A stretch of 64,000 bases of DNA from Polyangiaceae bacterium (GTDB lineage Bacteria; Myxococcota_A; Polyangia; Polyangiales; Polyangiaceae), in NCBI GenBank assembly GCA_019637295.1, contig JAHBVX010000004.1:186001-250000 (forward strand), read 5' to 3'. The notes under the pieces are model-generated. The model saw only the letters and a list, made by a program, of their open reading frames with translations, ran no database searches and was not told the origin of the DNA. Position 1 is the first letter of the stretch. The number at the start of each line of letters is the position of its first letter. A program made the translations under genes and the position numbers. Shown in pieces: positions 22,818 through 37,628 of the stretch.

Positions 22818-23642
22818 TCAGACCTCCGCCCGCCGGCGCAGCAGCACGCACGCGGGCTCGATGGCCGCGACGGCAGCGACGCAGGGCGCTCTGAACTCCT
22901 CCGTATCCGTGCGTGCGAGCACGCGACCGGTCTGCACCAGCTCGCTATCCATCACGCACACGACGGCGGACGGAGGTATCGCCACCGGGATCAGGCGTGG
23001 CGGCGGGGAGACGGCGGGCAGCGGGAGACCTTCGCGGGCGGAGATCAGCTCGATGGCATCGAGGGCGAACTCGACGGAGCCGAGCGGCGTGCGGGCACGC
23101 TCGACGACGGCGATCAACGAGGGCAAGTGCTCCGACGAGCCCAGGCGCCGCAGGGCGCGAATCGCGAGGAAGACCACCGAGCTGTCCCGGTCCCGCAGCA
23201 ACTTGTCGAGCAGCGGGCGTACCTCCGGGGCGTCGCGCTCGAGCAGCGCGCGCAGCGCGACGCTGCGCGTGGAGCCAGCGCGGTCGCGCAGCTTGGCGAC
23301 CAGCGTGGGCACGACGCGATCGCTAGGGCAGGCGCCGAGGGCGGCCAGGACCGAGTGGTGGTCGGCCCGGGCCGGCGAGCGTTCGAGTGCTTCCGCGAAC
23401 GCGTCCGGAAAGTCCCGGGCCAAGGCGACCAAGCACGCCTGGTACTCGGGCATCACGTCGCGATAGTCCGCGTCGTCACGGCCCAGCCGAGCGCCCGACT
23501 CGACCGCCTCGAGCAGCTCGCCGACGACCGGCGCTCCCAGCGCCAACAGCCCCTCGATGAGCTCCTCGGTGTTCGCGTCGCCCAGCGCGCCGAGGGCGGC
23601 GACTATCGCTCCTTGCCGTGCCTCGCTCCGGGTCGACACCAT
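22818..23642 (-). CDS. HEAT-repeat-like protein
   Basis: 274 residues from ATG 23642. Helical repeats of the HEAT/armadillo kind cover about residues 10-210: VVPTLVAKLRDRAGSTRSVA, LRALLERDAPEVRPLLDKLL and LRDRDSSVVFLAIRALRRLG, each ending in an LxALxxLG-like turn. The C-terminal 60 residues form a separate region (PRLIPVAIPPSAVVCVMD). Such proteins scaffold or bind partners; no catalytic residues are seen. It lies 38 bases downstream of the FAD oxidoreductase gene and is probably the last gene of that operon. Confidence 0.75.
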   Translation of the reverse strand: MVSTRSEARQGAIVAALGALGDANTEELIEGLLALGAPVVGELLEAVESGARLGRDDADYRDVMPEYQACLVALARDFPDAFAEALERSPARADHHSVLAALGACPSDRVVPTLVAKLRDRAGSTRSVALRALLERDAPEVRPLLDKLLRDRDSSVVFLAIRALRRLGSSEHLPSLIAVVERARTPLGSVEFALDAIELISAREGLPLPAVSPPPRLIPVAIPPSAVVCVMDSELVQTGRVLARTDTEEFRAPCVAAVAAIEPACVLLRRRAEV

Positions 23643-23680
23643 GCCCTGGATGTTCCCGCCACAGTGCCACGAGCGCAACG

Positions 23681-24916
23681 CTAGAGCGCCTTCGGCGCTG
23701 GCTCCACGGCCGCGGCCTGCGCGACCCGTCGGTGGTGAGGCGGTCGGGGACCAGGCGGGCGCGGCCGCATCCGAGTGAGCGGCCGCGCAGCAGAGAGCCA
23801 GCGCACCTCGGGGGTCATGGCCTGCGAGAAGTTCTTGTGCAATTGCTGCACGCGCTCGAGCGTCCAGGCGAAGGACGCGATCTCGTCGCTGATGTGGAAC
23901 ACCTCCGTCGTGAACTCGGCGCGCAGCCGAGCGTACCCTTCCAGATCGCCGCGCGCGATGGCCTCGGCCAGCAGCTCGGCGTCGCGCAGCGCGTCGGTGA
24001 TCCCGTGAGCGGTGATGGGATCGCGAAAGACACCCGCGTCGCCCACCAGCGCCCACCCCGGCCCGTAGGGGGCGCGTATGTGCCCCCGTGCGCCGGAGAA
24101 GCGCAGCAGTTTGCCGCTCGGTCGCGCGTCGACCAAACGCGCTGCCAGCTCCGGCGCGGCGGAACGCAGCAGTTCGACGTACGACGTCTCGACGCTCGCG
24201 CCGCTCATGACCACCTCGGGCGGGCCGGAGACGAATACGCAGGTCAGCCCGTCGTTGGTGGGGATGGCGCCCACGCCGACTCCCGGCGCATAGCCCCACA
24301 GGTAGCCGTCGACCTCGAGCCCTGACCAGTAACCGAAGATCACGGCGCCATGGTGCTCGCCCTCGAGCAGAGTGGGCGCGCGGACCCAGTCGGCCACCCG
24401 CGAAGAGCGTCCGTCGGCGCCGATCACGACGTCGGCCACCACGGCCTGGGTGCGACCCTGCCGATCGTGCACCACGACGCCCGAGACCCGACCGTCTGAA
24501 TCGCGCACGAGTCCCTGCACGAGCATGCCGTGCCGCACCTCCGCGCCCGCCTCCCGCGCCACGTCGACCACCACTCGATCGAGCAGCGTGCGCCGCGGCG
24601 CATACAGCGCGTCGCTGCCCGGAACCGACCGGATGGGCACCGTCACGCCCCCCGAGGGGTACAGGAACGTGGCCGAGCGCACGGCGGGGGTCCCCGCCGC
24701 GACGATGCGCTCGAGCGCGCCGAGCCGGTGCAGCGACAGCACACCGCCGCGCATCAGCGCGTGGGTGGAGACCGTGTCGGCGCCGTAGCGCGAGCGCTCC
24801 AGCACGAGCACCGACGCCCCCCGCTCGGCCAGCGCAGCGGCGGTCGCTGCTCCCGCGCACCGGCCGCCGACGATGACGGCGTCGTATCGTTGCTTCGAGG
24901 TGAGTCTCTGGGTCAT
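23681..24916 (-). CDS. FAD-dependent oxidoreductase (geranylgeranyl-reductase/monooxygenase-like)
   Basis: 411 residues from ATG 24916, with AGGAG seven bases upstream. The N-terminal FAD-binding beta-alpha-beta is DAVIVGGRCAGAATAAALAE, followed by LERSRYGADTVSTHAL. The middle motif is VIGADGRSSRVADWV and the second FAD motif is GDAGVFRDPITAHGITDAL. These identify a PHBH-fold flavoprotein related to aromatic monooxygenases, squalene-epoxidase-like and geranylgeranyl-reductase-like enzymes. It is likely to oxidise or reduce a small hydrophobic substrate. It is directly downstream of a second flavoprotein (19 bp), suggesting successive steps. Confidence 0.9.
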   Translation of the reverse strand: MTQRLTSKQRYDAVIVGGRCAGAATAAALAERGASVLVLERSRYGADTVSTHALMRGGVLSLHRLGALERIVAAGTPAVRSATFLYPSGGVTVPIRSVPGSDALYAPRRTLLDRVVVDVAREAGAEVRHGMLVQGLVRDSDGRVSGVVVHDRQGRTQAVVADVVIGADGRSSRVADWVRAPTLLEGEHHGAVIFGYWSGLEVDGYLWGYAPGVGVGAIPTNDGLTCVFVSGPPEVVMSGASVETSYVELLRSAAPELAARLVDARPSGKLLRFSGARGHIRAPYGPGWALVGDAGVFRDPITAHGITDALRDAELLAEAIARGDLEGYARLRAEFTTEVFHISDEIASFAWTLERVQQLHKNFSQAMTPEVRWLSAARPLTRMRPRPPGPRPPHHRRVAQAAAVEPAPKAL

Positions 24917-24935
24917 GGTCTCTCTCCTAGTGATG

Positions 24936-26183
24936 TCAGGCCGCTTGGCTGGTCGGTCCACCCAGGTACTTGGCTATCGCGGCGGCGAGCTCGGTGGCGT
25001 CGGCGCCCACTCCATCGAGGAAGCTCGAGTTGCGTCGGCGTAGGAACGGGAGCCCGAGCACGTACAGGCCCGGGTGCGGAGTGACCCCGCCGTCGTGCAC
25101 GATCTCACCCTGAGCATCGAGTACCCCAACGCGCAGCCATGGGTACTGACGCCGATAGCCCGTCGCCCACAGCACCGTGCGGATCCCAGAGTGTTTCCAG
25201 TGCAGCCTCGGCGCCACCGAGGGCGCTCGGATGGGCTCCGGGCGGAGGGTCTCGTCCTGGCCCGCGATCAACCCCGCGCGCCGGCCGAAGGCGTCGATGC
25301 GGCCGAGCAAGCGCCACAGCTTGTCGTCGGCCCGCCTGAGCTGGGCGTTCAGGTCACTGCCGAAGCTCACCCCGTCCGCGTCGGCGCCGAGGGTACCCCC
25401 GGCCAGCGCGACGCCGGCATCCGACAGCACGCCCAGGTCGAGCGTGCTGCGGTCGGGCCGTCCCACGAGCTGCATGGACGGCTGCTCCCGCGCGGCGTGG
25501 AGCGAGCGCACCTGATCCTTGCTCTCGCGCAGGACGCCCATCGCATCGAGCCACCAGAGGATGTCCCGCCCGCGGTAGACCCGCGGTAGACGCGTGTGAT
25601 GCCCGACGGACAGCGTGACCGGCCGACCGCTGCGATGGAGCTCGTCCGCGAGTTGCACGCCGGTCGCCGAGGCGCCCACGACCAGGACGCCCCCGGGCGG
25701 GAGCTGCTCCGGGCGCTTGTAGCGCGTGGGATGCACCTGCACGATGTGTCCCGGCAGGCGCGAGGCGAACTCGGGGACCCGAGGTACGTCGGCGTGCCCG
25801 GTCGCGATGACGACCGCGCGCGCGCGAAACGCGCCGCGCGTCGTTTGGACCTCGAGACTTTCGCCGCTCGCGGTGACGGCCTGCACGGTCGTGTCGGTCA
25901 GAAGCGGCGGCCCGAAGCTGCCAGCATAGCCCTCCAGGAGTGAGACGAGCTCGGCGCTCGTGGCGTACCCGTCCGGATCGGGCCCCGTGTAGCGGTAGCC
26001 GGGCAAGCGGCTCTGCCACTTGGGCGTGAGCAACATGAGCGAGTCCCAGCGCTCGGAGCGCCAGCGCTCGGCCAGGCGGCCCCGTTCGAGCACCACGTGC
26101 TCGACGCGGCGCTCGGTCAAGCATCGGCTCATGGCCAGCCCCGCCTGACCGCCTCCGATCACGACCGTGTCGACGTTTCTCAT
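24936..26183 (-). CDS. Flavin-containing monooxygenase (CzcO/FMO-like)
   Basis: 415 residues. Two dinucleotide-binding motifs are seen: VVIGGGQAGLAMSRCL near residue 8 for FAD and VLVVGASATGVQLADEL near 165 for NADPH. Between them, LPGHIVQVHPTRYKRP takes the place of the FMO fingerprint (usually FxGxxxHxxxY). These enzymes hydroxylate soft nucleophiles (N, S) or insert oxygen. GGGAGCG upstream of ATG 26183 fits a ribosome site. It sits between the OsmC gene and the second flavoprotein in one direction. Confidence 0.9.
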   Translation of the reverse strand: MRNVDTVVIGGGQAGLAMSRCLTERRVEHVVLERGRLAERWRSERWDSLMLLTPKWQSRLPGYRYTGPDPDGYATSAELVSLLEGYAGSFGPPLLTDTTVQAVTASGESLEVQTTRGAFRARAVVIATGHADVPRVPEFASRLPGHIVQVHPTRYKRPEQLPPGGVLVVGASATGVQLADELHRSGRPVTLSVGHHTRLPRVYRGRDILWWLDAMGVLRESKDQVRSLHAAREQPSMQLVGRPDRSTLDLGVLSDAGVALAGGTLGADADGVSFGSDLNAQLRRADDKLWRLLGRIDAFGRRAGLIAGQDETLRPEPIRAPSVAPRLHWKHSGIRTVLWATGYRRQYPWLRVGVLDAQGEIVHDGGVTPHPGLYVLGLPFLRRRNSSFLDGVGADATELAAAIAKYLGGPTSQAA

Positions 26184-26247
26184 GGTTCGCTCCCGGCAAT
26201 GCTCCAGCCGGCGCCCGCGCAGGGCGCCGACTGGAGCGGCCGCTCGC

Positions 26248-26859
26248 TCATGCGCCCGCGTTCACCTCGAGCTCGACCGGCACGCCGTTGGTGAGCACGT
26301 CGAACACCGCAGAGCGGCTGCGGGACTGCTGCACGATCTCGACGAGCTTCTCCGCGCTGGCGTCACCCTCGATCTCGAAGCTGATGCGGATGGCTTGATA
26401 GCCGTTGCGCACTCTCTCCGACATGCCGAAGATCCCGAGCAGATCGATGTCGCCCTCGACCGTGGATTGCACGCGCGTGAGCGCAACGCCCCGCGACGCC
26501 GCGATGTTGGCGATGCCGGCCGTGATGCACGCTGCGAGCGCGTGAAGCAAGAACTCGACCGGCGTGGGACCCTGGTCCTCACCGACGAGCACGCCCGGGT
26601 GATCCGCGTCATAGCGAAACTCCGCCGTGTGCGCGTGCTGACCCCCTGCGCCCGAGTAGCCGTGGATGTGGGTGCGGCTGTGGGTGCCCGCGAGCCACTG
26701 GTTCGTGGCCCGGAACTGGAACTTCGCCAGCTCCGGCTGGCCGCGCACCGCGTCTAGGGTGGCGAACAGCGTGGGGACGTTCACCCCGTTCAGTGGCGGT
26801 TTGGGCGCCTTGGGCGCCTTTGGGGTCCGGGTGCTGGTCACATCGTGGCTCATGCTCAT
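26248..26859 (-). CDS. OsmC-family protein with a single cysteine
   Basis: 203 residues. An N-terminal Lys/Pro/Ala tail is followed by an OsmC/Ohr-fold domain (about 70-200): GPTPVEFLLHALAACITAGIAN contains the conserved first Cys, but where OsmC/Ohr proteins have the second Cys (CPV/CSV) this one reads SRSRSAVFDVL. It is the only cysteine in the protein. Classical two-Cys peroxidase chemistry is therefore unlikely. It may work with an external thiol or bind a ligand. GGGAGAG precedes ATG 26859 (a second ATG is at 26853). It is probably the first gene of the flavoprotein operon. Confidence 0.88.
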   Translation of the reverse strand: MSMSHDVTSTRTPKAPKAPKPPLNGVNVPTLFATLDAVRGQPELAKFQFRATNQWLAGTHSRTHIHGYSGAGGQHAHTAEFRYDADHPGVLVGEDQGPTPVEFLLHALAACITAGIANIAASRGVALTRVQSTVEGDIDLLGIFGMSERVRNGYQAIRISFEIEGDASAEKLVEIVQQSRSRSAVFDVLTNGVPVELEVNAGA

Positions 26860-27009
26860 GCTCTCTCTCCCATTTATGCGGTGTTTCCCGCTGACGAGAG
26901 TGAGCTTGCGCCCCCGACGTGTGAGGGCGCGTTTGAGCCGGCGTGGAAAGGCGGCCTTGGCCTCCTTTGCCGATCCTTGTCCGATCGCGCCAAGGCGGCG
27001 CAGGTCGAG

Positions 27010-27279
27010 CTAAGGCGTGATCTTCGTGGCCGCCCAGACCCGGGAGAAGGGCAGACTCGCCAAGCGATTGGCCTCGCGCACGCTCTCCGCGTCTGCCGCT
27101 TCGTACACGCAGATCATCTTCTTGCGGTCCGCCGAGAAGTACGAGTGGAGAAAGTCGATCGAGCGCAGCGCGAAGCAATCCCCGCTAGCCGCCTCCAGGG
27201 CTTGAACCTCCTCGAAGGTGACCGGCTCCTCGAACTCGCGCTCCACCAATATCAATGCCATCGCTTCCTCCAACTTCAT
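27010..27279 (-). CDS. DUF4242-like small protein
   Basis: 89 residues. The pattern LVEREF near the start, DFLHSYFSADRKKMICVYEA in the middle and ESVREANRLASLPFSRVW matches the DUF4242 (SCO4226-like) family, small ferredoxin-fold proteins, one of which binds nickel. The ATG at 27279 overlaps the stop of the BTAD regulator (ATGA), so it is translated together with it; an internal ATG at 27261 is an alternative. Function unknown; the coupling suggests a link to the regulator, such as a ligand-binding partner. Confidence 0.82.
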   Translation of the reverse strand: MKLEEAMALILVEREFEEPVTFEEVQALEAASGDCFALRSIDFLHSYFSADRKKMICVYEAADAESVREANRLASLPFSRVWAATKITP

Positions 27280-30200
27280 GTCCCCGAGCCGCCGGGGTCG
27301 AGCAACTCCTCGACCGCGCGCTCGGCCAGCGCCGAAATCCCTCGCAGGGACTCGGCCTTGAGCTCGTCCAAGTGTCGCGCCGCCGCGAGCTCGTCTCCAC
27401 TCGCGCGCGTCGCACGCACGAGCGCGACGAACGAGAGCACGATGTCACTCGCGCGATCCAACAGCCGCGCGAGTTCGAGCGCCTCACGCGCCTGGGTCCG
27501 TGCCCGCGCCGGATCGACAGCAGCATCGTCCTCGAGCGCCGCACGGGTCAGCAGGTAGAGCAGGCGCTGCTTGGCGTCGAAGCCCCTGAGTTCGTCGAGC
27601 GCACGGTCGAGCTGTTGGCGCGCGCTCGGGTTACTGGCGAGCTCGCCAAGCGCGACCAGTCCGCGAGCGAACGGCGCCTCGCTGCCTTCGCGCACGCGCT
27701 CGGCCAGCGCCAGGTAGTCGGCGGCGTGCGCTCGGGCCCGTGCTCGCTCGCCGTGCTCCCACTCGAGCAACGTCAGCCGCTCGATGACGTGCAGCTCCAC
27801 TTCCCGGTCATGCGCTTCGCGCGCGGCGAGGTGCGCGCGCTCGAGCGCGCGGTTGCCGTCTTCGTACTGGCCTTGATGCGTGCGCAGCAGCCCCTCTGCG
27901 GCGACGAGCGCGGTAGGCTCGATGCGCAGGGCCTCCGCGCGCGTGCGGGCGTCCGCGAGCATCCGCTCCGCCTCCGGGAGGTCGCGTTCGAGGAGCACGA
28001 GGCAACGAGCGGCCTCCGCGACGGCGGCGACGTTCTCGCGCTCGTCGCCGCCCCGACTCACTCGCTCGGCGCGCAGCATGAGCTGCTCCGCGTCGGCGAC
28101 TCGACCCGACTGGAAGCGCAGCTCCGAGACGAGCTGAAACGCGAGACGCGCGTGGTCGGCGCACCCGTGCTCCGCCGCCGTCTCGGCCAAGCGCTCGAGC
28201 TCGCGCGCGGTGCTCTCCAGCTCCTCTGGGTGGCGGGCTCGCACGCTCGCCTGCATCAGCTCGATCCGGACGCGCACGCGCTCCGGCTCGGCGAGCCCGT
28301 CGGCGTGTCGCAGGCCGCGCTTGGCCAACGCCGCCGCCTCGGTGCTGGCGAACATGCGCATGCACTGCCGCGACGCGGTCAGGTGAGCGCGCGCCGCGCG
28401 AGCCGCGTCCCCGGCCAGCGACGCGTGGTGGGCGACCTCGAGCGCGCGGTCTTCACTGAACTGGGCACCCTCGTCCAGCGCGTCCGCCACGCGGGCGTGC
28501 ATCAACCGCCGGCGCGGCTCGGACAGGTCCGAGTGCGCCACGGAGCGCAGCAAGTCGTGCGCGAAGGCGTAGCTCGAGGGCCCCGCTTCTTCGGAGACGC
28601 GAATCAAGCCGTGACGCTCGAGCAATTCGAGGGACGCGACGAGGCGATCCGGCGCCAACGACGTGACCCGCTGCAGCCGCTCGACGGCAAAGGTGGCTCC
28701 GAGAACCGCGCCCCAGCGCAGGAGGTCGAGCGCCTCGGCGGGCAGACGCTCGAGGCGCTCCCGAATCAGCTCGGTCAGGGTGTGAGGAGCGCTACCGTCG
28801 CGCTCCGTCGCCCGCGCCAGCTCCAGCGCGAATAGTGGGTTGCCTCCACTCTGAGCGCAGAGCATGTCGATGTCGCCGTCGGGAGCCAGGAACGACACCA
28901 GCGCGCCCGTGTCTTCGCTGCTCAGTGGGCCGAGAGGCAGCTCGTCGAGCAGGCGGTCCCGCCGCAGGCTGCGCACCACGCTCGACGCCGGCGCGTTGTC
29001 CGCGAGCTCGCCACCCCGCGCGCCGAGCACGAAGCAGAGCTGCTGATTCTTGCTGACTCGCGCCACATAGTGCAGCAGCGTCGCCGAGGCATCGTCGCAC
29101 CACTGCAGGTCATCGAAGACGACCAGCACGGGGTGCTGGCCCTGCGCCCGGGTCGTGAGCAGCTCCGCGACCTCCGAGAACAGCCGGTCGCGGGTCTGCA
29201 TCGCGTTCGCTCCCCCGCCTCGAAGCTCTCTCGCGACGGCGGCGAGCAGCTCGCCGTCCGTCGACGCGGGCATTCGGCCGAGGGCATCCAGCCAGGGCCC
29301 GTACGGGCGAGCGCGCTCCGCCTCGTAGCACGCGCCCATCAGCGCGAGCCCGCCTCGTTCTCTCACGCGCTGGCGCACTTCGTGGAGCAGGCGCGACTTG
29401 CCGATGCCAGGCTCGCCGGTGACGAGGACGAAGCGCTCGCGTCCAGTCGCCACGACGGTCTCGTAGCTGCCCAGCAGTCGCTCTAGCTCCGCGCCGCGCC
29501 CCACCAGAGGAAAGGTGGCGGCTCCGGAGCGGGTGCTGGGCGGGGCGTCCAGGTCCAACCTCGCGAGCCTCGAGGGGGTCACGGGGACGGGCGACGAGGC
29601 CGCGGCGATGCGGGGTGCGCCCTTCGCGTCTTGCCAGGCCTGGACCAGCTCACCGCTCGGTGTGGTGCCCAGCTCTTTGAACAGTCGAAGCCCTGCGTTG
29701 TACTGTTGCTCGGCTTCTTCGCGGTGTCCGGTCACCATCAGCAGCCGCACGAGGATGGCCCGTGCTCGCTCGTCGAGGGGCTCGACCCGCGTCCAAGCGC
29801 GCGCGTGCGCGACCGCGCGGTTCGGATCGTCGGCGAGCCGCTTCACCAGCTCGGCGAGCGCGCGGGCGTGAAGGCGCCTGAGCTCCTCGCGCTCGGCGAT
29901 ACACCACGCCTGGAAGTCGTCGAAGTCCGGGAGGTCCAGGCCCTCCAGCAGCTCGCCGCGGAAGTAGCCCAGGCAGCTGGTGATCGACTCGGTGGACGCG
30001 CCCTCGAGCCCTCGACCCAGGCACTCGCGAACACGGAGCACGTCCACTTCGGCGCCGTGCGCGTGGAACTCGACCTGATCTCGGTCGGCGATGATGCGCT
30101 TGTGCCGCTCGTCGTCGACCAGGGTTCGCAGCTTGGAGAGACTCCAGCGCAGCGCGCCCCGGGGATCGTCGGTCACGTCCCAAAACAGGGAGCAGAGTCG

Positions 30201-30344
30201 CTCGCGACGATGCGGGCGGCCCGTGAGCACCAGGTAGGCGAGCAGGGCGCGGGTCTTCTTCGAGGGAGGCAGCGCGAGCGCAAGCCCACCCCGAGCGACC
30301 TCCACGCTCCCGAGAAACCCCAACGCCAGCGCTCCCTTGGCCAC
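27276..30344 (-). CDS. BTAD/AAA-ATPase transcriptional regulator (SARP/AfsR-like, large)
   Basis: 1022 residues, GTG start. An OmpR-like winged helix (about 5-100, LPPSKKTRALLAYLVLTGRP) is followed by a BTAD domain (about 100-245). The AAA ATPase has Walker A TGEPGIGKSR (309-318) and Walker B VVFDDLQWCDD (about 420). The C-terminal half is TPR-like helices. This is the architecture of AfsR/MalT/LuxR-like STAND regulators with a SARP head, which bind direct repeats in promoters and respond to a ligand through the TPR part. It lies divergent from the methyltransferase operon, with 122 bp between, and is translationally coupled to the DUF4242 gene; local control of both sides is likely. Confidence 0.9.
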   Translation of the reverse strand: MAKGALALGFLGSVEVARGGLALALPPSKKTRALLAYLVLTGRPHRRERLCSLFWDVTDDPRGALRWSLSKLRTLVDDERHKRIIADRDQVEFHAHGAEVDVLRVRECLGRGLEGASTESITSCLGYFRGELLEGLDLPDFDDFQAWCIAEREELRRLHARALAELVKRLADDPNRAVAHARAWTRVEPLDERARAILVRLLMVTGHREEAEQQYNAGLRLFKELGTTPSGELVQAWQDAKGAPRIAAASSPVPVTPSRLARLDLDAPPSTRSGAATFPLVGRGAELERLLGSYETVVATGRERFVLVTGEPGIGKSRLLHEVRQRVRERGGLALMGACYEAERARPYGPWLDALGRMPASTDGELLAAVARELRGGGANAMQTRDRLFSEVAELLTTRAQGQHPVLVVFDDLQWCDDASATLLHYVARVSKNQQLCFVLGARGGELADNAPASSVVRSLRRDRLLDELPLGPLSSEDTGALVSFLAPDGDIDMLCAQSGGNPLFALELARATERDGSAPHTLTELIRERLERLPAEALDLLRWGAVLGATFAVERLQRVTSLAPDRLVASLELLERHGLIRVSEEAGPSSYAFAHDLLRSVAHSDLSEPRRRLMHARVADALDEGAQFSEDRALEVAHHASLAGDAARAARAHLTASRQCMRMFASTEAAALAKRGLRHADGLAEPERVRVRIELMQASVRARHPEELESTARELERLAETAAEHGCADHARLAFQLVSELRFQSGRVADAEQLMLRAERVSRGGDERENVAAVAEAARCLVLLERDLPEAERMLADARTRAEALRIEPTALVAAEGLLRTHQGQYEDGNRALERAHLAAREAHDREVELHVIERLTLLEWEHGERARARAHAADYLALAERVREGSEAPFARGLVALGELASNPSARQQLDRALDELRGFDAKQRLLYLLTRAALEDDAAVDPARARTQAREALELARLLDRASDIVLSFVALVRATRASGDELAAARHLDELKAESLRGISALAERAVEELLDPGGSGT

Positions 30345-30466
30345 CGCGCGTCACCTTAGCAGATCCCGATTCCACGGGACCTCCCACGCGCCGTCACACG
30401 CGGCAGCGTCACGTTTGGCGGGTCCCGGCCCCCACGCAGCGCCGGCCCACAGCAAGGAGAGGTTCC
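30345..30466. promoter_or_regulatory. Divergent promoter region between BTAD regulator and methyltransferase operon
   Basis: A 122-bp region between two divergent starts. Repeated CGTCAC at 30392-30397 and 30407-30412 (15 bp apart), and inverted 7-base arms CGGGACC (30375-30381) and GGTCCCG (30421-30427). AAGGAGAGG precedes ATG 30467 as ribosome site. The repeats are candidate sites for the BTAD regulator; they are short and could be chance. Confidence 0.35.
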
Positions 30467-31258
30467 ATGGCCATCCAGAGTCCCCCCGGTTTCGACGTCG
30501 CTCGCCTGCGGCAGCTCGTGCAGAACACCTACGCTTCCGTCGCGGACGACCCCGACGGAGCGTTCCACTTCCACCGCGGCCCTGCGTACGCGGCGAGGCT
30601 GCTCGGCTACGACGCCGAGGAGCTCGCGACCCTGCCCGCGCGGAGCGCCGCCCGCTTCGCGGGGGTCGGAAATCCACTGGCTATTGGCCCCATCCATCCC
30701 GGCGAGACCGTGCTCGACCACGCCTGCGGCGCCGGTATGGACCTGTTGCTCGCCGCGCGCCGAGTGGGCCGCGCGGGGCGGGCCATCGGCGTGGACATGA
30801 CCCCCGCCATGCGCGAGGTCGCGGCGGCGTCGGCGAGCGCCGCGGGCCTCGAACAGGTCGACATTCGAGCCGGGTTCTTCGAGGAGCTGCCGATTGCGCG
30901 CGAGAGCGTCGACGTCGTGCTCAGCAACGGTGTCGTCAACCTGTCCCCCGACAAGGAGCGCGTGTTCGCGGAGATCTACCGGGTGCTGGTGCCCGGTGGT
31001 CGCCTGTACTTGGCCGACGTGGTCGTCCAGCGCGAGCTGCGTCTCGCCACGCGCCAGCAGCCCGAGCTGTGGGCGGCGTGTATCGCCGGCGCGCTCCCGG
31101 AGGGTCAACTGCTCGAGCTCGCGCGCAACTGCGGCCTGACCGACGTGCGCGTCACCCACCGCTACGACTCCTTCGCCGACACCAGCGCCCGGGCCCAGGT
31201 CTCGTCGGACCTGCGGGTCGGAGCCGTCGGGCTCTTCGCGACAAAGCCGCTCGGCTGA
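30467..31258 (+). CDS. ArsM-like SAM methyltransferase lacking two catalytic cysteines
   Basis: 263 residues. It has the class I SAM-binding fold with LDHACGAGMDLLLAARRVG and GVDMTPAMREVA, and LSPDKERVFAEIYRVLVPGG as in arsenite methyltransferases. The family cysteines are mostly missing: GCGNP reads GVGNP (Val 67) and SNCVINL reads SNGVVNL (Gly 155), while Cys 205 of the CxAGAL motif remains. Arsenite methylation is therefore doubtful and another S-, N- or O-acceptor is more likely. The start has AAGGAGAGG upstream. It is the first gene of a four-gene operon with a CysM-type enzyme 28 bp downstream. Confidence 0.88.
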   Translation: MAIQSPPGFDVARLRQLVQNTYASVADDPDGAFHFHRGPAYAARLLGYDAEELATLPARSAARFAGVGNPLAIGPIHPGETVLDHACGAGMDLLLAARRVGRAGRAIGVDMTPAMREVAAASASAAGLEQVDIRAGFFEELPIARESVDVVLSNGVVNLSPDKERVFAEIYRVLVPGGRLYLADVVVQRELRLATRQQPELWAACIAGALPEGQLLELARNCGLTDVRVTHRYDSFADTSARAQVSSDLRVGAVGLFATKPLG

Positions 31259-31286
31259 GCCTCGAGTTCATGGAACACTGTCGACC

Positions 31287-32180
31287 GTGCACGTCGCCGA
31301 CCTGATCGGAAACACACGCCTGGTGGAGCTCTCGGCGCTCCTCGAACGCCCCGGGGTTCGCCTGTTCGGCAAGCTCGAGGGCGACAACCCGGGCGGAAGC
31401 GTCAAGGATCGGCCCGCCAAGTGGATGATCAGAAACGCCATCGCCCGAGGCGAGCTCGTCCCGGGCATGCGCCTGATCGAGCCCACGAGCGGCAACACCG
31501 GCATCGCGCTCGCGATGTTGGCCCGGGCCTACGGCGTCGAGATCGATCTGGTGATGCCCGAGGGCTCGACCCTCGAGCGCGTGCACACCATGCAGGCGTT
31601 CGGCGCCAACGTGATCTCGACCCCCGCGGAGGGCGGCATGGAGGCCGCCATCGACCTCGCCCGCCAGCGCGTACGCGACGGAGGCGTGCTGATGCTGGAC
31701 CAGTTCTCCAACCCGGACAACTGGCTCGCCCACTACGAGACCACCGCGCCGGAGATCTGGCGTGACACTCAGGGACAGCTGACGCACTTCATCTCCGCCA
31801 TGGGTACGACCGGCACCATCATGGGCTGCGCGCGCTACTTCGCCGAGCACGCGCCGAGCGTACGGGTCGTCGGCGTCCACCCTGCGGGTGAGTCGCGCAT
31901 CCCCGGCATTCGCCGCTGGCCCGCGGCGTACCTACCCAAGATATTCGAGCCGGCGCGCGTGCACGAGACCTTCGAGGTGACCGCGGAGGAAGCCGAAGCG
32001 CAGACCCGCGAGCTGGCGCTCCGGCTCGGCGTGTTCGTGGGCGTCAGCGCGGGGGGCGCCGTCGTGGCCGCCAGGCGCGTCGCCGCAGGTCTGGAGCGCG
32101 GCACCCTCGTCACCATCCTGTGCGATCGGGGGGATCGCTACCTCTCGTCGGGCCTGTTCGGGCCGCGGGAGACGCCGTGA
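31287..32180 (+). CDS. CysM-type cysteine synthase family PLP enzyme
   Basis: 297 residues, GTG start. PLP Lys in GGSVKDRPAKW (Lys in SVKDR), the PLP-phosphate loop region EPTSGNTGIALA, and ISAMGTTGTIMG are all present. PEGSTLERVHTMQAFGA and DQFSNPDNW are typical of CysM (O-acetylserine sulfhydrylase B), which can also use thiosulfate or protein-bound thiocarboxylate. It makes or replaces the beta-substituent of a serine derivative. Its setting between a methyltransferase and an OsmC protein suggests a pathway-specific job rather than housekeeping cysteine synthesis. It overlaps the next gene by 4 bases. Confidence 0.93.
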   Translation: MHVADLIGNTRLVELSALLERPGVRLFGKLEGDNPGGSVKDRPAKWMIRNAIARGELVPGMRLIEPTSGNTGIALAMLARAYGVEIDLVMPEGSTLERVHTMQAFGANVISTPAEGGMEAAIDLARQRVRDGGVLMLDQFSNPDNWLAHYETTAPEIWRDTQGQLTHFISAMGTTGTIMGCARYFAEHAPSVRVVGVHPAGESRIPGIRRWPAAYLPKIFEPARVHETFEVTAEEAEAQTRELALRLGVFVGVSAGGAVVAARRVAAGLERGTLVTILCDRGDRYLSSGLFGPRETP

Positions 32181-32608
32181 CCACCCTCGATCTCACGCTG
32201 CGCCGCGTGGGCCCCGTCCAGTTCGAGGCGTCTGACGCCCGAGGCCACCGCGTCTTGGTGGAAGGCTCGACCGAGCTCGGCGGCCGCGACGAGGGCATGC
32301 GACCCATGGAGATGTTCCTGGTGGCGCTCGCGAGCTGCAGCGCCATCGACGTCGTCCACATCCTCGAGCGCAAACAGAAGCACACCCTCGAGCAGCTGGT
32401 CGTTCGCGTCCGCGGCGTGCGCGCCGACGCCGTCCCGGCCGTCTTTACCGAGGTGGAGCTCGCGTTCGAGGCCACCGGGAACATGAGCGAGAAGAAGCTC
32501 GCTCGCGCGGTCGCGCTCTCGGTAGAGAAGTACTGCTCCGTCACCCGCATGCTCGAGGGCAACGTCGTAGTACGTCACACGTACCGCCTCTCGCCCTCCG
32601 CCGGATAG
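32177..32608 (+). CDS. OsmC-family protein with both cysteines
   Basis: 143 residues from GTG 32177, overlapping the CysM stop as GTGA. YhfA-like OsmC fold: GMRPMEMFLVALASCSAIDV carries the first Cys and VEKYCSVTRML the second, so both redox cysteines of the family are in place. It may reduce organic peroxides or act on persulfides; the tight link to a CysM-type enzyme favours sulfur chemistry, which is inference. The next gene starts 3 bases after its stop. Confidence 0.9.
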   Translation: MTTLDLTLRRVGPVQFEASDARGHRVLVEGSTELGGRDEGMRPMEMFLVALASCSAIDVVHILERKQKHTLEQLVVRVRGVRADAVPAVFTEVELAFEATGNMSEKKLARAVALSVEKYCSVTRMLEGNVVVRHTYRLSPSAG

Positions 32609-32610
32609 CC

Positions 32611-33420
32611 ATGCTGCTCACCGTCCACTCGAGCTTGTGGCCGCTGTTGGTGTTGTTCCTCGTGTCCAACGCCTACGGCACGAGCGTGCTGTTCGGCGTC
32701 GCCCTGCTGAAGCAGCAGAGCTTCTTCGAGGGCAGCTTCTCGTCGCGCAAGTACTACCTGCTCATGGGCTGGGCGCCGCTCACCTATCTGGGCCTCGCGT
32801 TGCTGTTGGATCCTCGCTACGCGCTGTTCTTCGTCACTGCCGCGGCCCTCGGGGTGATCGGCGAGCTGCTGGTCTCCATCCACTTTCGCAGCTTCTTCCG
32901 CGAGCCCATCTGGACCTACAGCCACAGCTCGATCCTCTCGGGCTACACCGCCACCATCAACATCTTGCCCTGGGCCGTTGGAGCGCTCTTGTTCCACGTC
33001 TTCGGGCGGCTGATCTTTCCGGCGGCTGAGCCGCTGCCGGTGGACGCGATGCTCACCGCCACTGTCGCGGTCCTGGGCGGCGTTGCCCTGTCGCTGGCGC
33101 TGCGCTCACGCACGAGCGCCCGCACGGGGCAGCTCTCCGTCGCCGCGTTCGCGGTCTTTTGTCTGCCCATCGCGACTTCGGCCCTGGCCCTGGGGCTGCT
33201 CTGCGACGCGCGCTACCCGCTGGTCATGGCCATCTTCTCGCTGGTCGGCTTCAGCACCGAGTACGGTTACGGTCGCAGCATGGCGCTGTTCTTCGATCGT
33301 GCACTGTGGACCTACAACCACTGGCCCATCGACGAAGGTCACTCGAGCTTCGTCACGTTCCCGTTGTGGGCCCTCGGGGGCCTCTACTTTCACTTCATCG
33401 CGGTGCTCGTGGGACTGTGA
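32611..33420 (+). CDS. Internally duplicated polytopic membrane protein
   Basis: 269 residues with about seven hydrophobic segments. The two halves repeat with a 132-residue period: Asp67-x-Arg-Tyr70, Gly81, Glu85, Phe95-Phe96 and the WTYSH motif (101-105) recur as Asp199-x-Arg-Tyr202, Gly213, Glu217, Phe227-Phe228 and WTYNH (233-237). Conserved Glu and His inside or next to membrane helices suggest metal, cofactor or proton handling. I do not recognise the family. It is the last gene of the methyltransferase-CysM-OsmC operon. Confidence 0.8.
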   Translation: MLLTVHSSLWPLLVLFLVSNAYGTSVLFGVALLKQQSFFEGSFSSRKYYLLMGWAPLTYLGLALLLDPRYALFFVTAAALGVIGELLVSIHFRSFFREPIWTYSHSSILSGYTATINILPWAVGALLFHVFGRLIFPAAEPLPVDAMLTATVAVLGGVALSLALRSRTSARTGQLSVAAFAVFCLPIATSALALGLLCDARYPLVMAIFSLVGFSTEYGYGRSMALFFDRALWTYNHWPIDEGHSSFVTFPLWALGGLYFHFIAVLVGL

Positions 33421-34215: not shown

Positions 34216-34354
34216 TCGAGTCCGAAATCGGGTCGCGGGGACGCCCCGTCGCACTATACGGTGACGCGGCGGCGGATCTTCCCGTCGGCGGATTCTTTGA
34301 ATATTTGGCTAACGCAGCGCCCGCGCGCGGCATCCGCCACTCGAAGTCGTGACC

Positions 34355-35677
34355 ATGCAGCAACAAGGCGATCCCGAAGTCCTCAAGACCTTGACCAAAG
34401 GCCGCTCCCCGCTGCGCCGCTGGCTCTTTCGCTTGCTGCCCATCGTGATCATCGCCGCCATGGTGGGCGGGATCATGCTCTATCGCGCGCGCACACAGCG
34501 CCCCGACTCGGACCGGTACGTCACCGCGCCCGCTGAACGCGCGAGTATCCGCGAGACGGTGTCCGCCACCGGGACGCTCAGCGCCCTGGACACCGTCGAG
34601 GTGGGCGCGGAGGTCACCGGGCGCGCCATGAAGGTCCTCGTCGACTTCAACGATCAGGTCAAGGCAGGTCAGGTCCTCGCCGAGATCGACACCGAACAGC
34701 TCGACGCCAAGGTCGAGCAGTCGCAGGCGCAGCTTCGTAGCGCTCAGTCGTCCTATCGCAACTCACAGGCGACGGCGCGCGAGTCCAAGCTCAAGGCCGA
34801 GCGCGCGAGGGAGCTGCACAAGCGCGGGTTGGTATCGGATCAGGACCTCGAGACCCTGGAGGCCACGCTGGCCCGCGCGAACGCCAGCGTCGGCAGCGCC
34901 TCCGCGCAGGTCACCGTGGCTCGCGCCAACGTGCGTGCCGACCAGACGAGCCGCTCCAAGGCGCTGATCAAGTCGCCCATCGACGGCATCGTGCTGTCGC
35001 GCAGCGTCGAGCCGGGTCAGACCGTGACCGCGGGCTTTCAGACCCCCGTCCTCTTCATGCTGGCGCGGGATCTGACCCAGATGCAGCTCAAGGTGGACGT
35101 GGACGAGGCGGACATCGGCAAGGTGCAAGAGGGCCAACGGGCCACGTTCCTCGTCGACGCCTACCCGCGCAAGCGCTTCAACTCCAAGGTGCTCAGCCTG
35201 CGCTACCTGCCCAAGCCCGCCACGTCGGTGGTCACCTACGAGGCGGTGCTGTCGGTGGACAACTCCGAGCGCTTGCTGCGGCCGGGCATGACGGCCACGA
35301 GCACCATCGTCGTGGAGGACAAGCAGAACGTGCTGACGGTGCCGAACGCTGCGCTGCGCTTCACGCCGCCCCGAGAGGGAGGCGCCGGTAGCCGCGCTAC
35401 AGCCGCGATACCGCTGCCTGGCTTCGGCGGCCCGGGCGCCAGCCTGGGTCGCGGTGGAGGCATGCGCGGCGGCGGGGGGCCTCGGGGCGGGGGCACTCCG
35501 GGCGCGGGCCAAGCTCGGGGCGGCGGCGCGGACAAAGTGTTCGTACTCCGGGAGGGCAAGCTGGTGCGGGTGGCCGTGGAAATTGGCGTGAGCGATGGCC
35601 GTCGCAGCGAGATCGTCGGGGGCGAACTGAAGGAGGGCGACCTGGTGGTCACCGAGATGTCGGAGACCACGAAGTGA
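34355..35677 (+). CDS. MacA-like periplasmic adaptor (HlyD/RND-MFP family)
   Basis: 440 residues from ATG 34355 (GTG 34349 is also in frame). A single N-terminal membrane helix (LPIVIIAAMVGGIMLY) is followed by a lipoyl half-motif (VGAEVTGRAMKVLVDFNDQV), a long alpha-hairpin (about 115-190), the second lipoyl half (IKSPIDGIVLSRSVEPGQ) and beta-barrel and membrane-proximal domains. A Gly/Arg-rich insert (about 355-390) sits in the last domain. It joins the inner-membrane ABC pump to the outer-membrane channel. It overlaps the ATPase gene as GTGA. Confidence 0.92.
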   Translation: MQQQGDPEVLKTLTKGRSPLRRWLFRLLPIVIIAAMVGGIMLYRARTQRPDSDRYVTAPAERASIRETVSATGTLSALDTVEVGAEVTGRAMKVLVDFNDQVKAGQVLAEIDTEQLDAKVEQSQAQLRSAQSSYRNSQATARESKLKAERARELHKRGLVSDQDLETLEATLARANASVGSASAQVTVARANVRADQTSRSKALIKSPIDGIVLSRSVEPGQTVTAGFQTPVLFMLARDLTQMQLKVDVDEADIGKVQEGQRATFLVDAYPRKRFNSKVLSLRYLPKPATSVVTYEAVLSVDNSERLLRPGMTATSTIVVEDKQNVLTVPNAALRFTPPREGGAGSRATAAIPLPGFGGPGASLGRGGGMRGGGGPRGGGTPGAGQARGGGADKVFVLREGKLVRVAVEIGVSDGRRSEIVGGELKEGDLVVTEMSETTK

Positions 35678-36426
35678 CGACCTTCGCCGTCGTCGAGTTC
35701 AAGGGCGTCTCCAAGATTTACGGCGCCGGCGACACCGAAGTGCGCGCGCTCGACGGCGTGGACATGCGCATCCATCGCGGAGAGTTCGTCGCCATCATGG
35801 GCTCGAGCGGCTCGGGCAAGAGCACGGCCATGAACCTGATTGGCTGTCTGGATTTGCCGACCCTTGGCGCCTACGAGTTTCGTGGCGTGAACGTGTGCGA
35901 GCTCGACGCGGACCAGCGCGCGCTACTGCGGCGGATGTACATCGGCTTCGTGTTCCAAGGCTTCAACCTGCTCGCGCGTACCAGCGCCGTGGAGAACGTG
36001 GAGTTGCCCCTCGTCTATCGACGGGTCCCCGCCCGTGAGCGTCGCGAGCGCGCCATGGAGTCCCTGCGCGCGGTCGGACTCGAGAACCGCGCGCACCACA
36101 CGCCGTCCGAGCTCTCCGGCGGACAGCAGCAGCGCGTCGCCATCGCACGCGCGTTGGTGTCGGACCCATCCCTGTTGCTCGCGGACGAGCCCACGGGGAA
36201 CCTGGACTCGCCGCGCAAGCGGGAGATCATGGAGCTGCTCGTCCGCCTGAACGAAGAGCGGGGCATCACCATCGCCATGGTCACCCACGAGCCGGACATG
36301 AGCGTCTACGTCTCCCGGGTCGCCATGTTCAAGGACGGCAAGCTGGTGGGCGACGACGCTCCAGAGCACGTGACCTTCGCCGGGCCGCTCTCCACGCGCC
36401 CGCTGTCGTCGAGGCAGTCGTCATGA
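35674..36426 (+). CDS. MacB-type ABC transporter ATPase
   Basis: 250 residues, GTG start overlapping the adaptor stop. Walker A GSSGSGKS, Q-loop FVFQGFNLL, signature LSGGQQQR, Walker B LLLADEPTGNLD and H-loop VTHEP are all intact and of the MacB/LolD/YknY type. In E. coli MacB the ATPase and permease are one chain; here they are separate, as in YknYZ. It powers export of small molecules or peptides, or lipoprotein handling, from the periplasm by mechanotransmission. It shares ATGA with the permease gene. Confidence 0.96.
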   Translation: MTTFAVVEFKGVSKIYGAGDTEVRALDGVDMRIHRGEFVAIMGSSGSGKSTAMNLIGCLDLPTLGAYEFRGVNVCELDADQRALLRRMYIGFVFQGFNLLARTSAVENVELPLVYRRVPARERRERAMESLRAVGLENRAHHTPSELSGGQQQRVAIARALVSDPSLLLADEPTGNLDSPRKREIMELLVRLNEERGITIAMVTHEPDMSVYVSRVAMFKDGKLVGDDAPEHVTFAGPLSTRPLSSRQSS

Positions 36427-37628
36427 TCCGCGCCACGCTCGTCATGGCGCTGCGCGAGATCCGTCGCAACACCCTGCGCTCGTTCTTGACCATGCTCGGC
36501 ATCGTGATCGGCGTGGGGGCGGTGATCGCCCTGACCACCATCGGCGAGGGCGCGACGGCGCGCGTCACGCAAGACATCGCCAAGCTGGGCAACAACTTGC
36601 TCATCGTCCAGCCGGACCGCAGCCGGCGCAGCGGTGGCTTCACGCCGGCGGCCCCCTTCCGCCAGACGGACGTGGAGATCATTCGCCAGGAGGTCACCGG
36701 CGCGGAGGCCGTGGCTCCCACGGCCAACCGGCAAGCGATGGCGGTCTGGGGCAACCGCAACCGCCAGCTCAGCGCCACCGGCACCACGAACGACTACCTG
36801 ACCGTGCGCGGCTATACGCTGTCGGCGGGCCGCTCCTTCATGGAGTCGGAGGAGAACTCGTCGTCGCCCTTGTGCATCATCGGCGCCACGGTGCGCACGG
36901 AGCTCTTCGGCGGCAGCGATCCGATTGGTCAATCCATACGACTCGACAAGCTGAGCTGCGAGGTGATCGGCGTGCTCGGCGCCAAAGGCCAGAGCGGGAT
37001 GGGACAGGACCAGGACGACGTGATCCTGCTGCCTCTTCGGACCGTGCAGCGCCGAATGCTGGGCACCAACGACGTCAACGCCATCTACGTCTCGGCGGCG
37101 GAGGGGCGCAGCACGGCGCAGGTCAAGAGCCAGATGGAGTCCTTGCTCCGGCAGCGCCGGCGGATCCCGCCCGGCGGAGAGGACGACTTCTCCGTGCGTG
37201 ACATGGCGGAGATCGCTGCGGCCATGAGCAGCGCCACGGGCGTATTGACCACGCTGCTCGGCGCCATCGCGGGCGTCAGCCTGCTCGTGGGCGGCATCGG
37301 CATCATGAACATCATGCTCGTCAACGTCACCGAGCGCACCCGGGAGATCGGCATCCGCCTCGCCATCGGCGCGCGCGGTCGGGAGGTCATGCTGCAGTTC
37401 CTGGTCGAAGCCGTGGTGCTCTCCACCCTCGGCGGGGTCATCGGCATCCTGCTCGGGCTCTTCGGCTCGTACATGGCCACACGCTCCTTGCAGATGCCCT
37501 TCGTGCTGGTCCCCGACGTGATGGGCCTCGCCTTCGTGTTCTCGGCACTGGTCGGGATCGGTTTCGGATACTTGCCGGCGCACAAAGCGGCCCGGCTCAA
37601 CCCCATCGAGGCGCTTCGTCATGAGTGA
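36423..37628 (+). CDS. MacB-type ABC transporter permease (FtsX-like)
   Basis: 401 residues with four membrane helices: one at the N-terminus (FLTMLGIVIGVGAVIAL) and three in the C-terminal FtsX domain (about 270-395, LLGAIAGVSLLVGGIGIMNI). A large periplasmic MacB_PCD domain lies between them. The conserved segment TERTREIGIRLAIGARG is present. The ATG overlaps the ATPase stop, and its own stop lies 8 bases inside the outer-membrane channel gene, so all four efflux genes are translationally linked. Confidence 0.95.
   Translation: MIRATLVMALREIRRNTLRSFLTMLGIVIGVGAVIALTTIGEGATARVTQDIAKLGNNLLIVQPDRSRRSGGFTPAAPFRQTDVEIIRQEVTGAEAVAPTANRQAMAVWGNRNRQLSATGTTNDYLTVRGYTLSAGRSFMESEENSSSPLCIIGATVRTELFGGSDPIGQSIRLDKLSCEVIGVLGAKGQSGMGQDQDDVILLPLRTVQRRMLGTNDVNAIYVSAAEGRSTAQVKSQMESLLRQRRRIPPGGEDDFSVRDMAEIAAAMSSATGVLTTLLGAIAGVSLLVGGIGIMNIMLVNVTERTREIGIRLAIGARGREVMLQFLVEAVVLSTLGGVIGILLGLFGSYMATRSLQMPFVLVPDVMGLAFVFSALVGIGFGYLPAHKAARLNPIEALRHE

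What the first reader, a model, noticed from the sequence alone, without database searches (positions are those of the whole stretch)
22818..33420. Divergent redox/sulfur locus under a BTAD-AAA regulator: candidate undescribed pathway
On one side: BTAD/AAA regulator, coupled DUF4242 protein, single-Cys OsmC, an FMO, a second flavoprotein, a HEAT protein. On the other: ArsM-like methyltransferase without key Cys, CysM-type synthase, two-Cys OsmC and a duplicated membrane protein, packed with gaps of 28 bp, a 4-base overlap and 2 bp. SARP-type regulators often control small-molecule pathways. The set would suit making, methylating or oxidising a sulfur (or selenium) compound, with OsmC proteins handling persulfide or peroxide by-products. 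The function is inference.
Basis: partly seen in the sequence, partly recalled or inferred. Interest (0 to 1): 0.68.

Follow-up and report, generated by a model that had tools for sequence, protein, structure and literature searches.

The report
Conserved sulfur-redox gene module, function unproven
A stretch of bacterial DNA joins two gene sets that are each conserved in other bacteria and may handle small reactive sulfur (or selenium) compounds; I found no description of either, and what they act on is still unknown.

Summary
They are not one conserved unit but three pieces.

(1) A flavoenzyme module. In 317 same-class genomes, FMO1 loci of at least 48% identity have OsmC1 next door in 15 of 16 (window included); 37-40% homologues in 0 of 10. 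In 80 public loci whose titles name six phyla, OsmC1 accompanies FMO1 in 76, FAD2 in 31, BTAD-type hits in 18. The regulator's N-terminus resembles AfsR, a SARP.

(2) CysM-OsmC2, a separate pair: adjacent in 12 of 12 genomes with OsmC2, window included.

(3) The methyltransferase, from an ArsM offshoot that lost two of three arsenic-site cysteines. Its Cys205 is an in-frame TGA in six relatives, followed by a SECIS-like hairpin. One TGA form lies directly upstream of OsmC1-FMO1-FAD2; the other five have sulfur genes within 4 kb. The subfamily is in only 2 of the 80 loci.

Best reading: inducible handling of small thiols, persulfides or methylthiols. Substrate and reactions are inferred; MaoC after FAD2 supports a catabolic rival.

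The parts
27276..30344 (-). BTAD-AAA_16 regulator, 1022 aa, SARP-type N-terminus, STAND-like ATPase core
   Evidence: Pfam BTAD 42 bits, AAA_16 100 bits; AF2 model of residues 1-250 (mean pLDDT 69.6) best matches AfsR 8k60/8hvr, then EmbR 2ff4; BTAD-type hits in 18 of 80 module loci
27010..27279 (-). SCO4226-like (DUF4242) small protein, 4-bp overlap with the regulator
   Evidence: PF14026 62.6 bits; the only match of the family in this genome; one or two copies in related loci
26248..26859 (-). OsmC1, single-Cys OsmC (C111), core of the module
   Evidence: PF02566 68.5 bits; one Cys; only PDB sequence match of its profile is 2opl; with FMO1 in 76 of 80 loci
26184..26247 (-). 64-bp gap OsmC1-FMO1 that folds into a 16-bp GC-rich hairpin (-48.5 kcal/mol)
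   Evidence: z -5.3; over all 83 gaps scored, 15 have z below -3 and 30 a stem of at least 10 bp
24936..26183 (-). FMO1, FMO-like flavoprotein, 415 aa
   Evidence: Pyr_redox_3 78 bits; 349.6 bits to TIGR04046, below its cut-off 498; nearest PDB sequences 4usq/4usr/4a9w
23681..24961 (-). FAD2, FAD_binding_3 / geranylgeranyl-reductase-superfamily flavoprotein, 26-bp overlap with FMO1
   Evidence: hits in 31 of 80 module loci
22818..23642 (-). HEAT-repeat protein, 274 aa; not seen in relatives' loci, probably not part of the module
   Evidence: HEAT_2 39.6 bits; start; no match in relatives' loci
30467..31258 (+). MT, ArsM-derived 'FHFH' methyltransferase with Cys205 at the Sec position
31287..32180 (+). 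CysM-type cysteine synthase
   Evidence: NF008735 417.5 bits, cut-off 413; below TIGR01138's cut-off and TIGR01136's
32177..32608 (+). OsmC2, YhfA-like two-Cys OsmC, 4-bp overlap with CysM
   Evidence: PF02566 72.2 bits; NF008009 (PRK10738) 91 bits, below its cut-off 138; CysM neighbour in 12 of 12
32611..33420 (+). MEM, membrane protein with two similar halves; PF06541-like
   Evidence: 32.5 bits; halves align; in 4 of 39 genomes, window included; no other window gene beside it in the other three

Best explanation
The locus brings together a conserved redox module (SARP/STAND regulator + DUF4242 partner, one-Cys OsmC1, FMO1, FAD2), a conserved CysM-OsmC2 pair, and the Cys form of an ArsM-derived Cys/Sec methyltransferase. 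Most likely mechanism (inferred): the regulator, perhaps with DUF4242 as ligand or metal sensor, switches the genes on when a small reactive thiol, persulfide or methylthiol (or its selenium analogue) builds up. MT methylates the soft nucleophile using Cys205. OsmC1 holds the sulfur species on its single thiolate, and FMO1 and FAD2 oxygenate or dehydrogenate it. CysM with OsmC2 fixes released sulfide or persulfide into cysteine. Shown by sequence: gene content, OsmC1-FMO1(-FAD2) conservation, the Cys/Sec equivalence and the CysM-OsmC2 pairing. Inferred: substrate, reaction order, sensing, and that the arms work together. About 0.9 that OsmC1-FMO1 is a real functional pairing; about 0.35 for the sulfur mechanism, which is the confidence given here.
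For: OsmC1 next to FMO1 in 15 of 16 close FMO1 loci (window included) against 0 of 10 distant ones, 1.5 kb examined on each side; with FMO1 in 76 of 80 public loci, upstream on the same strand within 411 bp in 75 of 80. All 15 genomes with FMO1 of at least 48% identity also have OsmC1. Gene order and orientation differ while the set is kept. MT sits inside the module in G174 and G311 and directly upstream of OsmC1 in a Longimicrobiales MAG, there with TGA at the Cys205 position. Six MT relatives have that TGA with a hairpin right after it: 97.9% of cells paired, covariation score reached by 1 of 500 shuffles, slid versions much lower. tRNA-Sec is over cut-off in 5 of the 6 genomes and in the window's genome. 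The five stand-alone Sec-MT loci all have a sulfur gene within 4 kb: DsrE (L038, L041; L041 also FCSD/SQR-like), ArsR-rhodanese (L037, L039; L039 also Sulf_transp and a metallo-beta-lactamase-fold gene), Cys/Met PLP enzyme about 2 kb off (L040). A PALP enzyme related to CysM (glutaredoxin-fused in L118, the one scanned) gives strong hits in 7 module loci, directly upstream of OsmC1 in 5 (Chelatococcus three, Oricola, Tropicimonas). SBP56, the methanethiol-oxidase family, is convergent with OsmC1-FMO1 in 9 Mesorhizobium loci. CysM-OsmC2 12 of 12.
Against: No substrate evidence at all. The MT subfamily is in only 2 of 80 public module loci (L136, L188), and of 9 of 192 class genomes with it only G000 and G174 showed it beside the module; in G048 the Sec-MT and the module lie on different contigs. 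Rhodanese, metallo-beta-lactamase and Sulf_transp queries found 0 of 81 module loci, DsrE 1, FCSD 1, Cys/Met PLP 2. SBP56 is confined to one genus and is convergent, not co-directional. MaoC hits occur in 16 of 81, mostly right after FAD2, which points to CoA-thioester chemistry. FAD2 is missing from 49 of 80 loci and BTAD from 62 (some contigs are short). Two covariation measures of the hairpin are no better than chance or weak (pairs with a double change: 200 of 500 shuffles as high; further pair types: 32 of 500). The genome has 7 CysK/M-family matches, three over cut-off, so this CysM is not needed for bulk cysteine. The one sampled genome of the same genus, G001, has no OsmC1, FMO1 or OsmC2 at the thresholds used.
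Confidence: 0.35

Rival explanations
1. OsmC1-FMO1-FAD2-(MaoC) is a catabolic or detoxifying route for an organic compound (for example a terpenoid, ketone or acyl compound): flavoenzymes oxygenate it, MaoC hydrates a CoA ester, and OsmC1 removes peroxides leaked by the flavoenzymes. Sulfur is incidental.
For: MaoC hits in 16 of 81 module loci, mostly directly after FAD2, in loci titled Acidobacteria, Alphaproteobacteria, Deltaproteobacteria, Gemmatimonadota and Mycobacterium; 0 of 16 other loci; FAD2 nearest to halogenases, geranylgeranyl reductases and hydroxylases; alpha/beta hydrolases next to some loci.
Against: OsmC1 lacks the second Cys of classical OsmC/Ohr peroxidases; no MaoC hit in the window; the Sec/Cys methyltransferase and CysM-like neighbours are unexplained.
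Confidence: 0.3
2. The divergent arms are unrelated: a module on the left and an ordinary CysM-OsmC2 pair on the right, brought together by rearrangement, with no shared pathway.
For: In the 11 other genomes the CysM-OsmC2 pair had no other window gene within the up to 1.5 kb examined on each side; in G174 the two sets lie on different contigs; MEM and HEAT do not follow either set; the MT subfamily is in 2 of 80 module loci.
Against: MT lies beside the right arm here and inside or next to the left module in G174, G311 and L188; PALP enzymes recur directly upstream of OsmC1 in three other genera; tight spacing of MT-CysM-OsmC2-MEM.
Confidence: 0.25
3. Arsenic handling: ArsM plus an ArsO-like monooxygenase.
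For: MT hits arsenite methyltransferase models (211.9 bits) and FMO1 hits ArsO (121.3 bits).
Against: Both are below the curated cut-offs (263 and 425). The C72 position is Val in 10 of 10 scorable subfamily rows and the C174 position Gly in 11 of 11, against Cys in 17 of 17 and 19 of 20 ArsM-like rows. No ars gene came up among the neighbours I scanned, a selection only.
Confidence: 0.05
4. A small biosynthetic cluster making a sulfur natural product under SARP control.
For: SARP-type regulator; methyltransferase, PLP enzyme and flavoenzymes.
Against: No scaffold-building enzyme among the ten genes (the rest of the window was not scanned by family); OsmC1-FMO1 is spread over unrelated phyla with different neighbours.
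Confidence: 0.08

Closest known systems
TIGR04046 / MSMEG_0569-family FMO (the NitH-type flavoprotein of Nit1C nitrilase clusters; that placement is recalled)
   Same: FMO1 aligns over almost the full model (350 bits)
   Different: Below the cut-off 498; the 37-40% class homologues have no OsmC1 beside them (0 of 10)
Selenocysteine arsenite methyltransferase (UxxG, NF008823 and fusions; table passages of PMC13188914)
   Same: Sec/Cys at a UxxG position, ArsM sequence family
   Different: This subfamily lacks the C72 and C174 cysteines, has an N-terminal FHFH motif, and groups apart from 19 of 20 ArsM-like rows
OsmC-like selenoprotein / NF041052 (UxxT; passages of PMC1088965 and PMC13188914)
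   Same: OsmC1 has one Cys and matches NF041052 at 62 bits
   Different: Below the cut-off 95; no Sec form among the 19 OsmC1 homologues read
AfsR-type SARP regulators
   Same: N-terminal fold and BTAD
   Different: Adjoining DUF4242 partner gene; not an actinobacterial locus
SBP56 methanethiol oxidase (passages of PMC5739008)
   Same: Its family lies beside OsmC1-FMO1 in nine Mesorhizobium loci
   Different: The paper describes mtoX with SCO1/senC and mauG and does not mention OsmC; no SBP56 hit in the window

Membership tests
SARP regulator | AfsR-like winged-helix plus BTAD N-terminus | tested here: met
   BTAD by Pfam; AF2 model best hits AfsR, E 1.2e-4, TM 0.57. Trans_reg_C itself did not score, and residues 46-81 have low confidence
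OsmC/Ohr thiol peroxidase (OsmC1) | two catalytic cysteines | tested here: not met
   single Cys C111
OsmC/Ohr thiol peroxidase (OsmC2) | two catalytic cysteines | tested here: met
   C54 and C120; activity not testable
Arsenite methyltransferase ArsM | three-Cys As(III) site (C72, C174, C224 in the algal enzyme; numbering recalled) | tested here: not met
   V67, G155, C205; also 211.9 bits against cut-off 263
Sec/Cys methyltransferase subfamily (as defined here) | Sec or Cys at UxxG, with a SECIS-like hairpin in the Sec forms | tested here: met
   Sec insertion itself not shown
TIGR04046 MSMEG_0569 FMO | score over the curated cut-off | tested here: not met
   349.6 against 498.35
Flavin-containing monooxygenase fingerprint FxGxxxHxxx(F/Y/W) (recalled) | central His | tested here: not met
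   LPGHIVQVHPTRY at 143: Gln149 at the His position
CysM cysteine synthase | score over the curated cut-off | tested here: inconclusive
   NF008735 417.5 against 413 met; TIGR01138 359.9 against 394.2 and TIGR01136 330.4 against 344.15 not met
SCO4226-like nickel protein | conserved Ni-1 ligands D43, S46, H76 (passages of PMC4186839) | tested here: inconclusive
   Pfam family met; the profile found no PDB match to number the ligands on
Sulfoxidising or methylthiol-active FMO | turnover of thiols or sulfides | not testable with these tools
   needs enzyme assay

The most novel reading that the evidence does not exclude
An undescribed SARP-controlled pathway for one-carbon sulfur or selenium compounds, spread over several phyla, in which a Cys/Sec methyltransferase makes a methyl-chalcogen and a one-Cys OsmC works as a dedicated chalcogen carrier that hands it to a paired FMO; the CysM-OsmC2 pair would be a second use of OsmC as a sulfur carrier, for cysteine synthase.
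Probability: 0.15. Interest if true: 0.76.

Novelty: new variant of a known kind. Interest (0 to 1): 0.5.

Why it matters
OsmC proteins are usually filed as peroxide-stress enzymes (recalled; also so described in passages of PMC8346489). Here two different OsmC types each travel with an enzyme partner, FMO1 and CysM. That makes a partner-protein or sulfur-carrier role directly testable, and gives a handle on a flavoenzyme module of unknown substrate that also occurs in named isolates. The Cys205/Sec exchange marks the residue to test in the methyltransferase.

Tried and rejected
OsmC1 as a selenoprotein: one search flagged one TGA in G174 and in G260; one search showed no internal Sec, so these are stops at the end of the match.

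Arsenic locus: rejected on the lost cysteines and sub-cut-off scores.

MT-like hits in module loci (9 of 80): only L136 and L188 are this subfamily. L120 is an ordinary ArsM-like sequence, L138, L150 and L159 are UbiE-like, and L123, L133 and L169 are short weak hits.

MEM structure: AF2 mean pLDDT 55.7, too poor to search; left.

DUF4242 against PDB: no match.

Promoters and terminators: no sigma-70-like site; 2 terminator-like sites against 3.0 in shuffles.

Literature. I saw the listed entries only (15 of 72, 25 of 5,531, 20 of 55, 11 of 11, 20 of 194, 12 of 35, 1 of 1, 4 of 4, 15 of 38) plus passages of five papers. No listed title or abstract start described an OsmC-FMO or CysM-OsmC pair. 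Papers outside the held library were not searched.

Weakness of one control: the 16 'other' loci are not random; seven are MT loci, four of which supplied six of the nine panel queries, so the hits there are largely self-hits. How often sulfur genes lie near a random gene was not measured.

Rows dropped: three minus-strand loci (L009, L011, L012) were read on the wrong strand; that alignment was redone and is not used. In one search, 20 of 21 ArsM-like loci entered the tree (a length filter dropped one). In one search, loci with gaps under 20 bases were not scored.

Full report
What is there. All ten genes of the finding are present with the stated spacing. Family scans give a BTAD-AAA_16 regulator, an SCO4226-like protein (DUF4242), OsmC1, an FMO-like flavoprotein (FMO1), a FAD_binding_3 flavoprotein (FAD2) and a HEAT protein on the minus strand, and an ArsM-type methyltransferase (MT), a CysM-type synthase, OsmC2 and a PF06541-like membrane protein (MEM) on the plus strand. 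The HEAT start is probably 23642.

The left arm holds a conserved module. I searched 317 genomes of the same class with OsmC1 and with FMO1. OsmC1 matched in 19 genomes (E up to 1e-25) and FMO1 in 21 (E up to 1e-60); all 15 genomes with FMO1 of at least 48% identity are among the 19. Of the 26 FMO1 loci, the 16 at or above 48% identity (window included) have OsmC1 beside FMO1 in 15; in the sixteenth (L069) FMO1 runs up to a contig end. The 10 loci at 37-40% have none within 1.5 kb. Longer stretches show BTAD, one or two DUF4242 copies, OsmC1, FMO1 and FAD2 together in changing orders: BTAD divergent in L096, L097 and L099, but DUF4242, MT and BTAD downstream of FAD2 in G174 (L035) and G311 (L102). 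The same set in rearranged orders argues for function rather than shared ancestry alone.

It is widespread. Record titles name Acidobacteria, Myxococcota lineages, Proteobacteria classes, Gemmatimonadota, actinobacterial lineages and Eisenbacteria. OsmC1 accompanies FMO1 in 76 of 80; the window's other proteins hit FAD2 in 31, BTAD-type regulators in 18, CysM-like genes and MT-like genes in 9 each, DUF4242 in 8, and OsmC2, MEM and HEAT in none. These are hits anywhere in loci of 3 to 21 kb, so short contigs undercount. In 75 of 80, OsmC1 is upstream on the same strand within 411 bp. Of the four loci without OsmC1, L153 and L176 have FMO1 within 150 bases of a contig end; L130 and L164 do not. 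Ten of the 80 are Mesorhizobium, and some are the same loci as in the class search (for example L136 = L102).

Neighbours differ between loci. Panel over 81 loci (80 + window): MaoC-like hydratase 16, mostly right after FAD2 (L136 and L181 not directly); PALP synthases 9, including the window's own CysM, with 7 strong ones (Chelatococcus three, Oricola, Tropicimonas, a Mesorhizobium 6 kb away, a deltaproteobacterium 4 kb away), and the one scanned (L118) is fused to glutaredoxin; SBP56 9, all Mesorhizobium, convergent; Cys/Met PLP 2; DsrE 1; FCSD 1; ArsR-rhodanese, metallo-beta-lactamase and Sulf_transp 0. So sulfur-linked partners recur, but so does a CoA-type partner.

The regulator. Residues 1-250 modelled with nine sequences (mean pLDDT 69.6) match AfsR first and then EmbR among solved structures, so 'SARP-type' is right, with low confidence at residues 46-81. 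DUF4242 occurs once in this genome. A DUF4242-BTAD pair also exists at a locus of G010 (L197) without OsmC1 or FMO1 in the stretch held, so it may be a general sensor pair.

The right arm. OsmC2 (E up to 1e-20) was found in 12 of 192 genomes, and CysM is beside it in 12 of 12, the window included. In G174, which has both sets, they lie on different contigs (C429 and C381). MEM was found in 4 of 39 genomes, with no other window gene beside it in the three others. The genome carries 7 CysK/M-family matches, three over the cut-off, the window's own (330 bits) just below it, so this CysM is a paralogue with a specific partner.

The methyltransferase. Against solved ArsM structures the aligned C72 position is Val67, the C174 position Gly155, and the C224 position Cys205 (numbering recalled). 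Close relatives have TGA exactly there: L037-L041 and L188. A hairpin follows (columns 13-20 with 24-31 counted from the T of TGA; the outermost pair is missing in L188). Over 8 pairs and 6 sequences, 97.9% of cells pair and two pairs change on both sides. Cells paired, cells with double changes and the covariation score were each reached by 1 of 500 shuffles, but the number of pairs with a double change by 200 of 500 and further pair types by 32 of 500; slid versions were lower. This is good but not final evidence for Sec. tRNA-Sec is over cut-off in G000 and in 5 of the 6 genomes, not G087. The window has TGT and a broken outer stem. In a tree of 31 rows the subfamily separates from 19 of 20 ArsM-like rows, with the long-branched L030 falling beside it; L188 is also a long branch. 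The five Cys rows form one clade (100/100) among Sec rows, which fits one Sec-to-Cys change, the root being unproven. The C72 position is Val in 10 of 10 scorable members and the C174 position Gly in 11 of 11.

Context of the methyltransferase. The subfamily was in 9 of 192 class genomes searched (G163's copy is cut by a contig end) and in 2 of the 80 module loci. It is inside the module in G174 and G311 (the latter is also L136), directly upstream of OsmC1 as a Sec form in the Longimicrobiales MAG L188, and beside the module in the window; elsewhere it stands apart, in G048 on another contig than the module. Around the five stand-alone Sec forms I found DsrE next to it (L038, L041), an FCSD/SQR-like gene (L041), ArsR-rhodanese next to it (L037) or 3 kb off (L039, with Sulf_transp and a metallo-beta-lactamase-fold gene), and a Cys/Met PLP enzyme about 2 kb off (L040). 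I did not measure how often such genes lie near a random gene. Two stand-alone Cys forms (L036, L042) share another neighbour, AurF-like below the cut-off.

Mechanism. The account that uses most of the evidence is an inducible system for small reactive thiols, persulfides or methylthiols (or selenium analogues): MT methylates via Cys205; OsmC1, with one Cys only, cannot run the usual two-Cys peroxidase cycle alone and may carry the sulfur species; FMO1 and FAD2 oxygenate or dehydrogenate; CysM-OsmC2 fixes sulfur. None of these reactions was tested. The catabolic rival (FMO1-FAD2-MaoC on an organic substrate) is nearly as likely for the core, and the arms may be unrelated.

Known or new. Every protein belongs to a known family. 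Sec-containing arsenite methyltransferases (UxxG) and OsmC-like selenoproteins are in print (passages of PMC13188914 and PMC1088965). In nine searches of the held library, of which I saw the listed entries only, I met no description of the OsmC-FMO module, the CysM-OsmC pair, or this cysteine-poor methyltransferase subfamily. I rate it a new variant of a known kind.

Noticed in passing
window 26184-26247 (- strand): The OsmC1-FMO1 gap folds into a 16-bp hairpin (z -5.3). Of 83 gaps scored (some loci twice), 30 have stems of at least 10 bp and 15 have z below -3; sequences differ between loci.
   Followed up: partly
window 31079-31114: Possible remnant of a SECIS-like stem after the Cys205 TGT codon of MT.
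   Followed up: partly
G311:C152:13062-13943: A CysK/M-family match (408 bits) reported with one in-frame TGA; could be a natural stop, a pseudogene or Sec.
   Followed up: no
G183:C6:41258-41665 (L201): OsmC2 homologue reported with one TAG in the match.
   Followed up: no
L168: A MAG labelled Klebsiella pneumoniae carries OsmC1-FMO1; probably mis-binned or mislabelled.
   Followed up: no
L197 (G010:C212): DUF4242 beside a BTAD-AAA regulator without OsmC1/FMO1 in the stretch held: perhaps a general regulatory pair.
   Followed up: no
L037:10783-11574, L039:4954-5850: A second methyltransferase gene downstream of the Sec methyltransferase in both loci.
   Followed up: no
window 34349-39117: HlyD-like, ABC ATPase, FtsX-like permease and TolC-like ORFs in a row downstream of the right arm (by eye only).
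   Followed up: no
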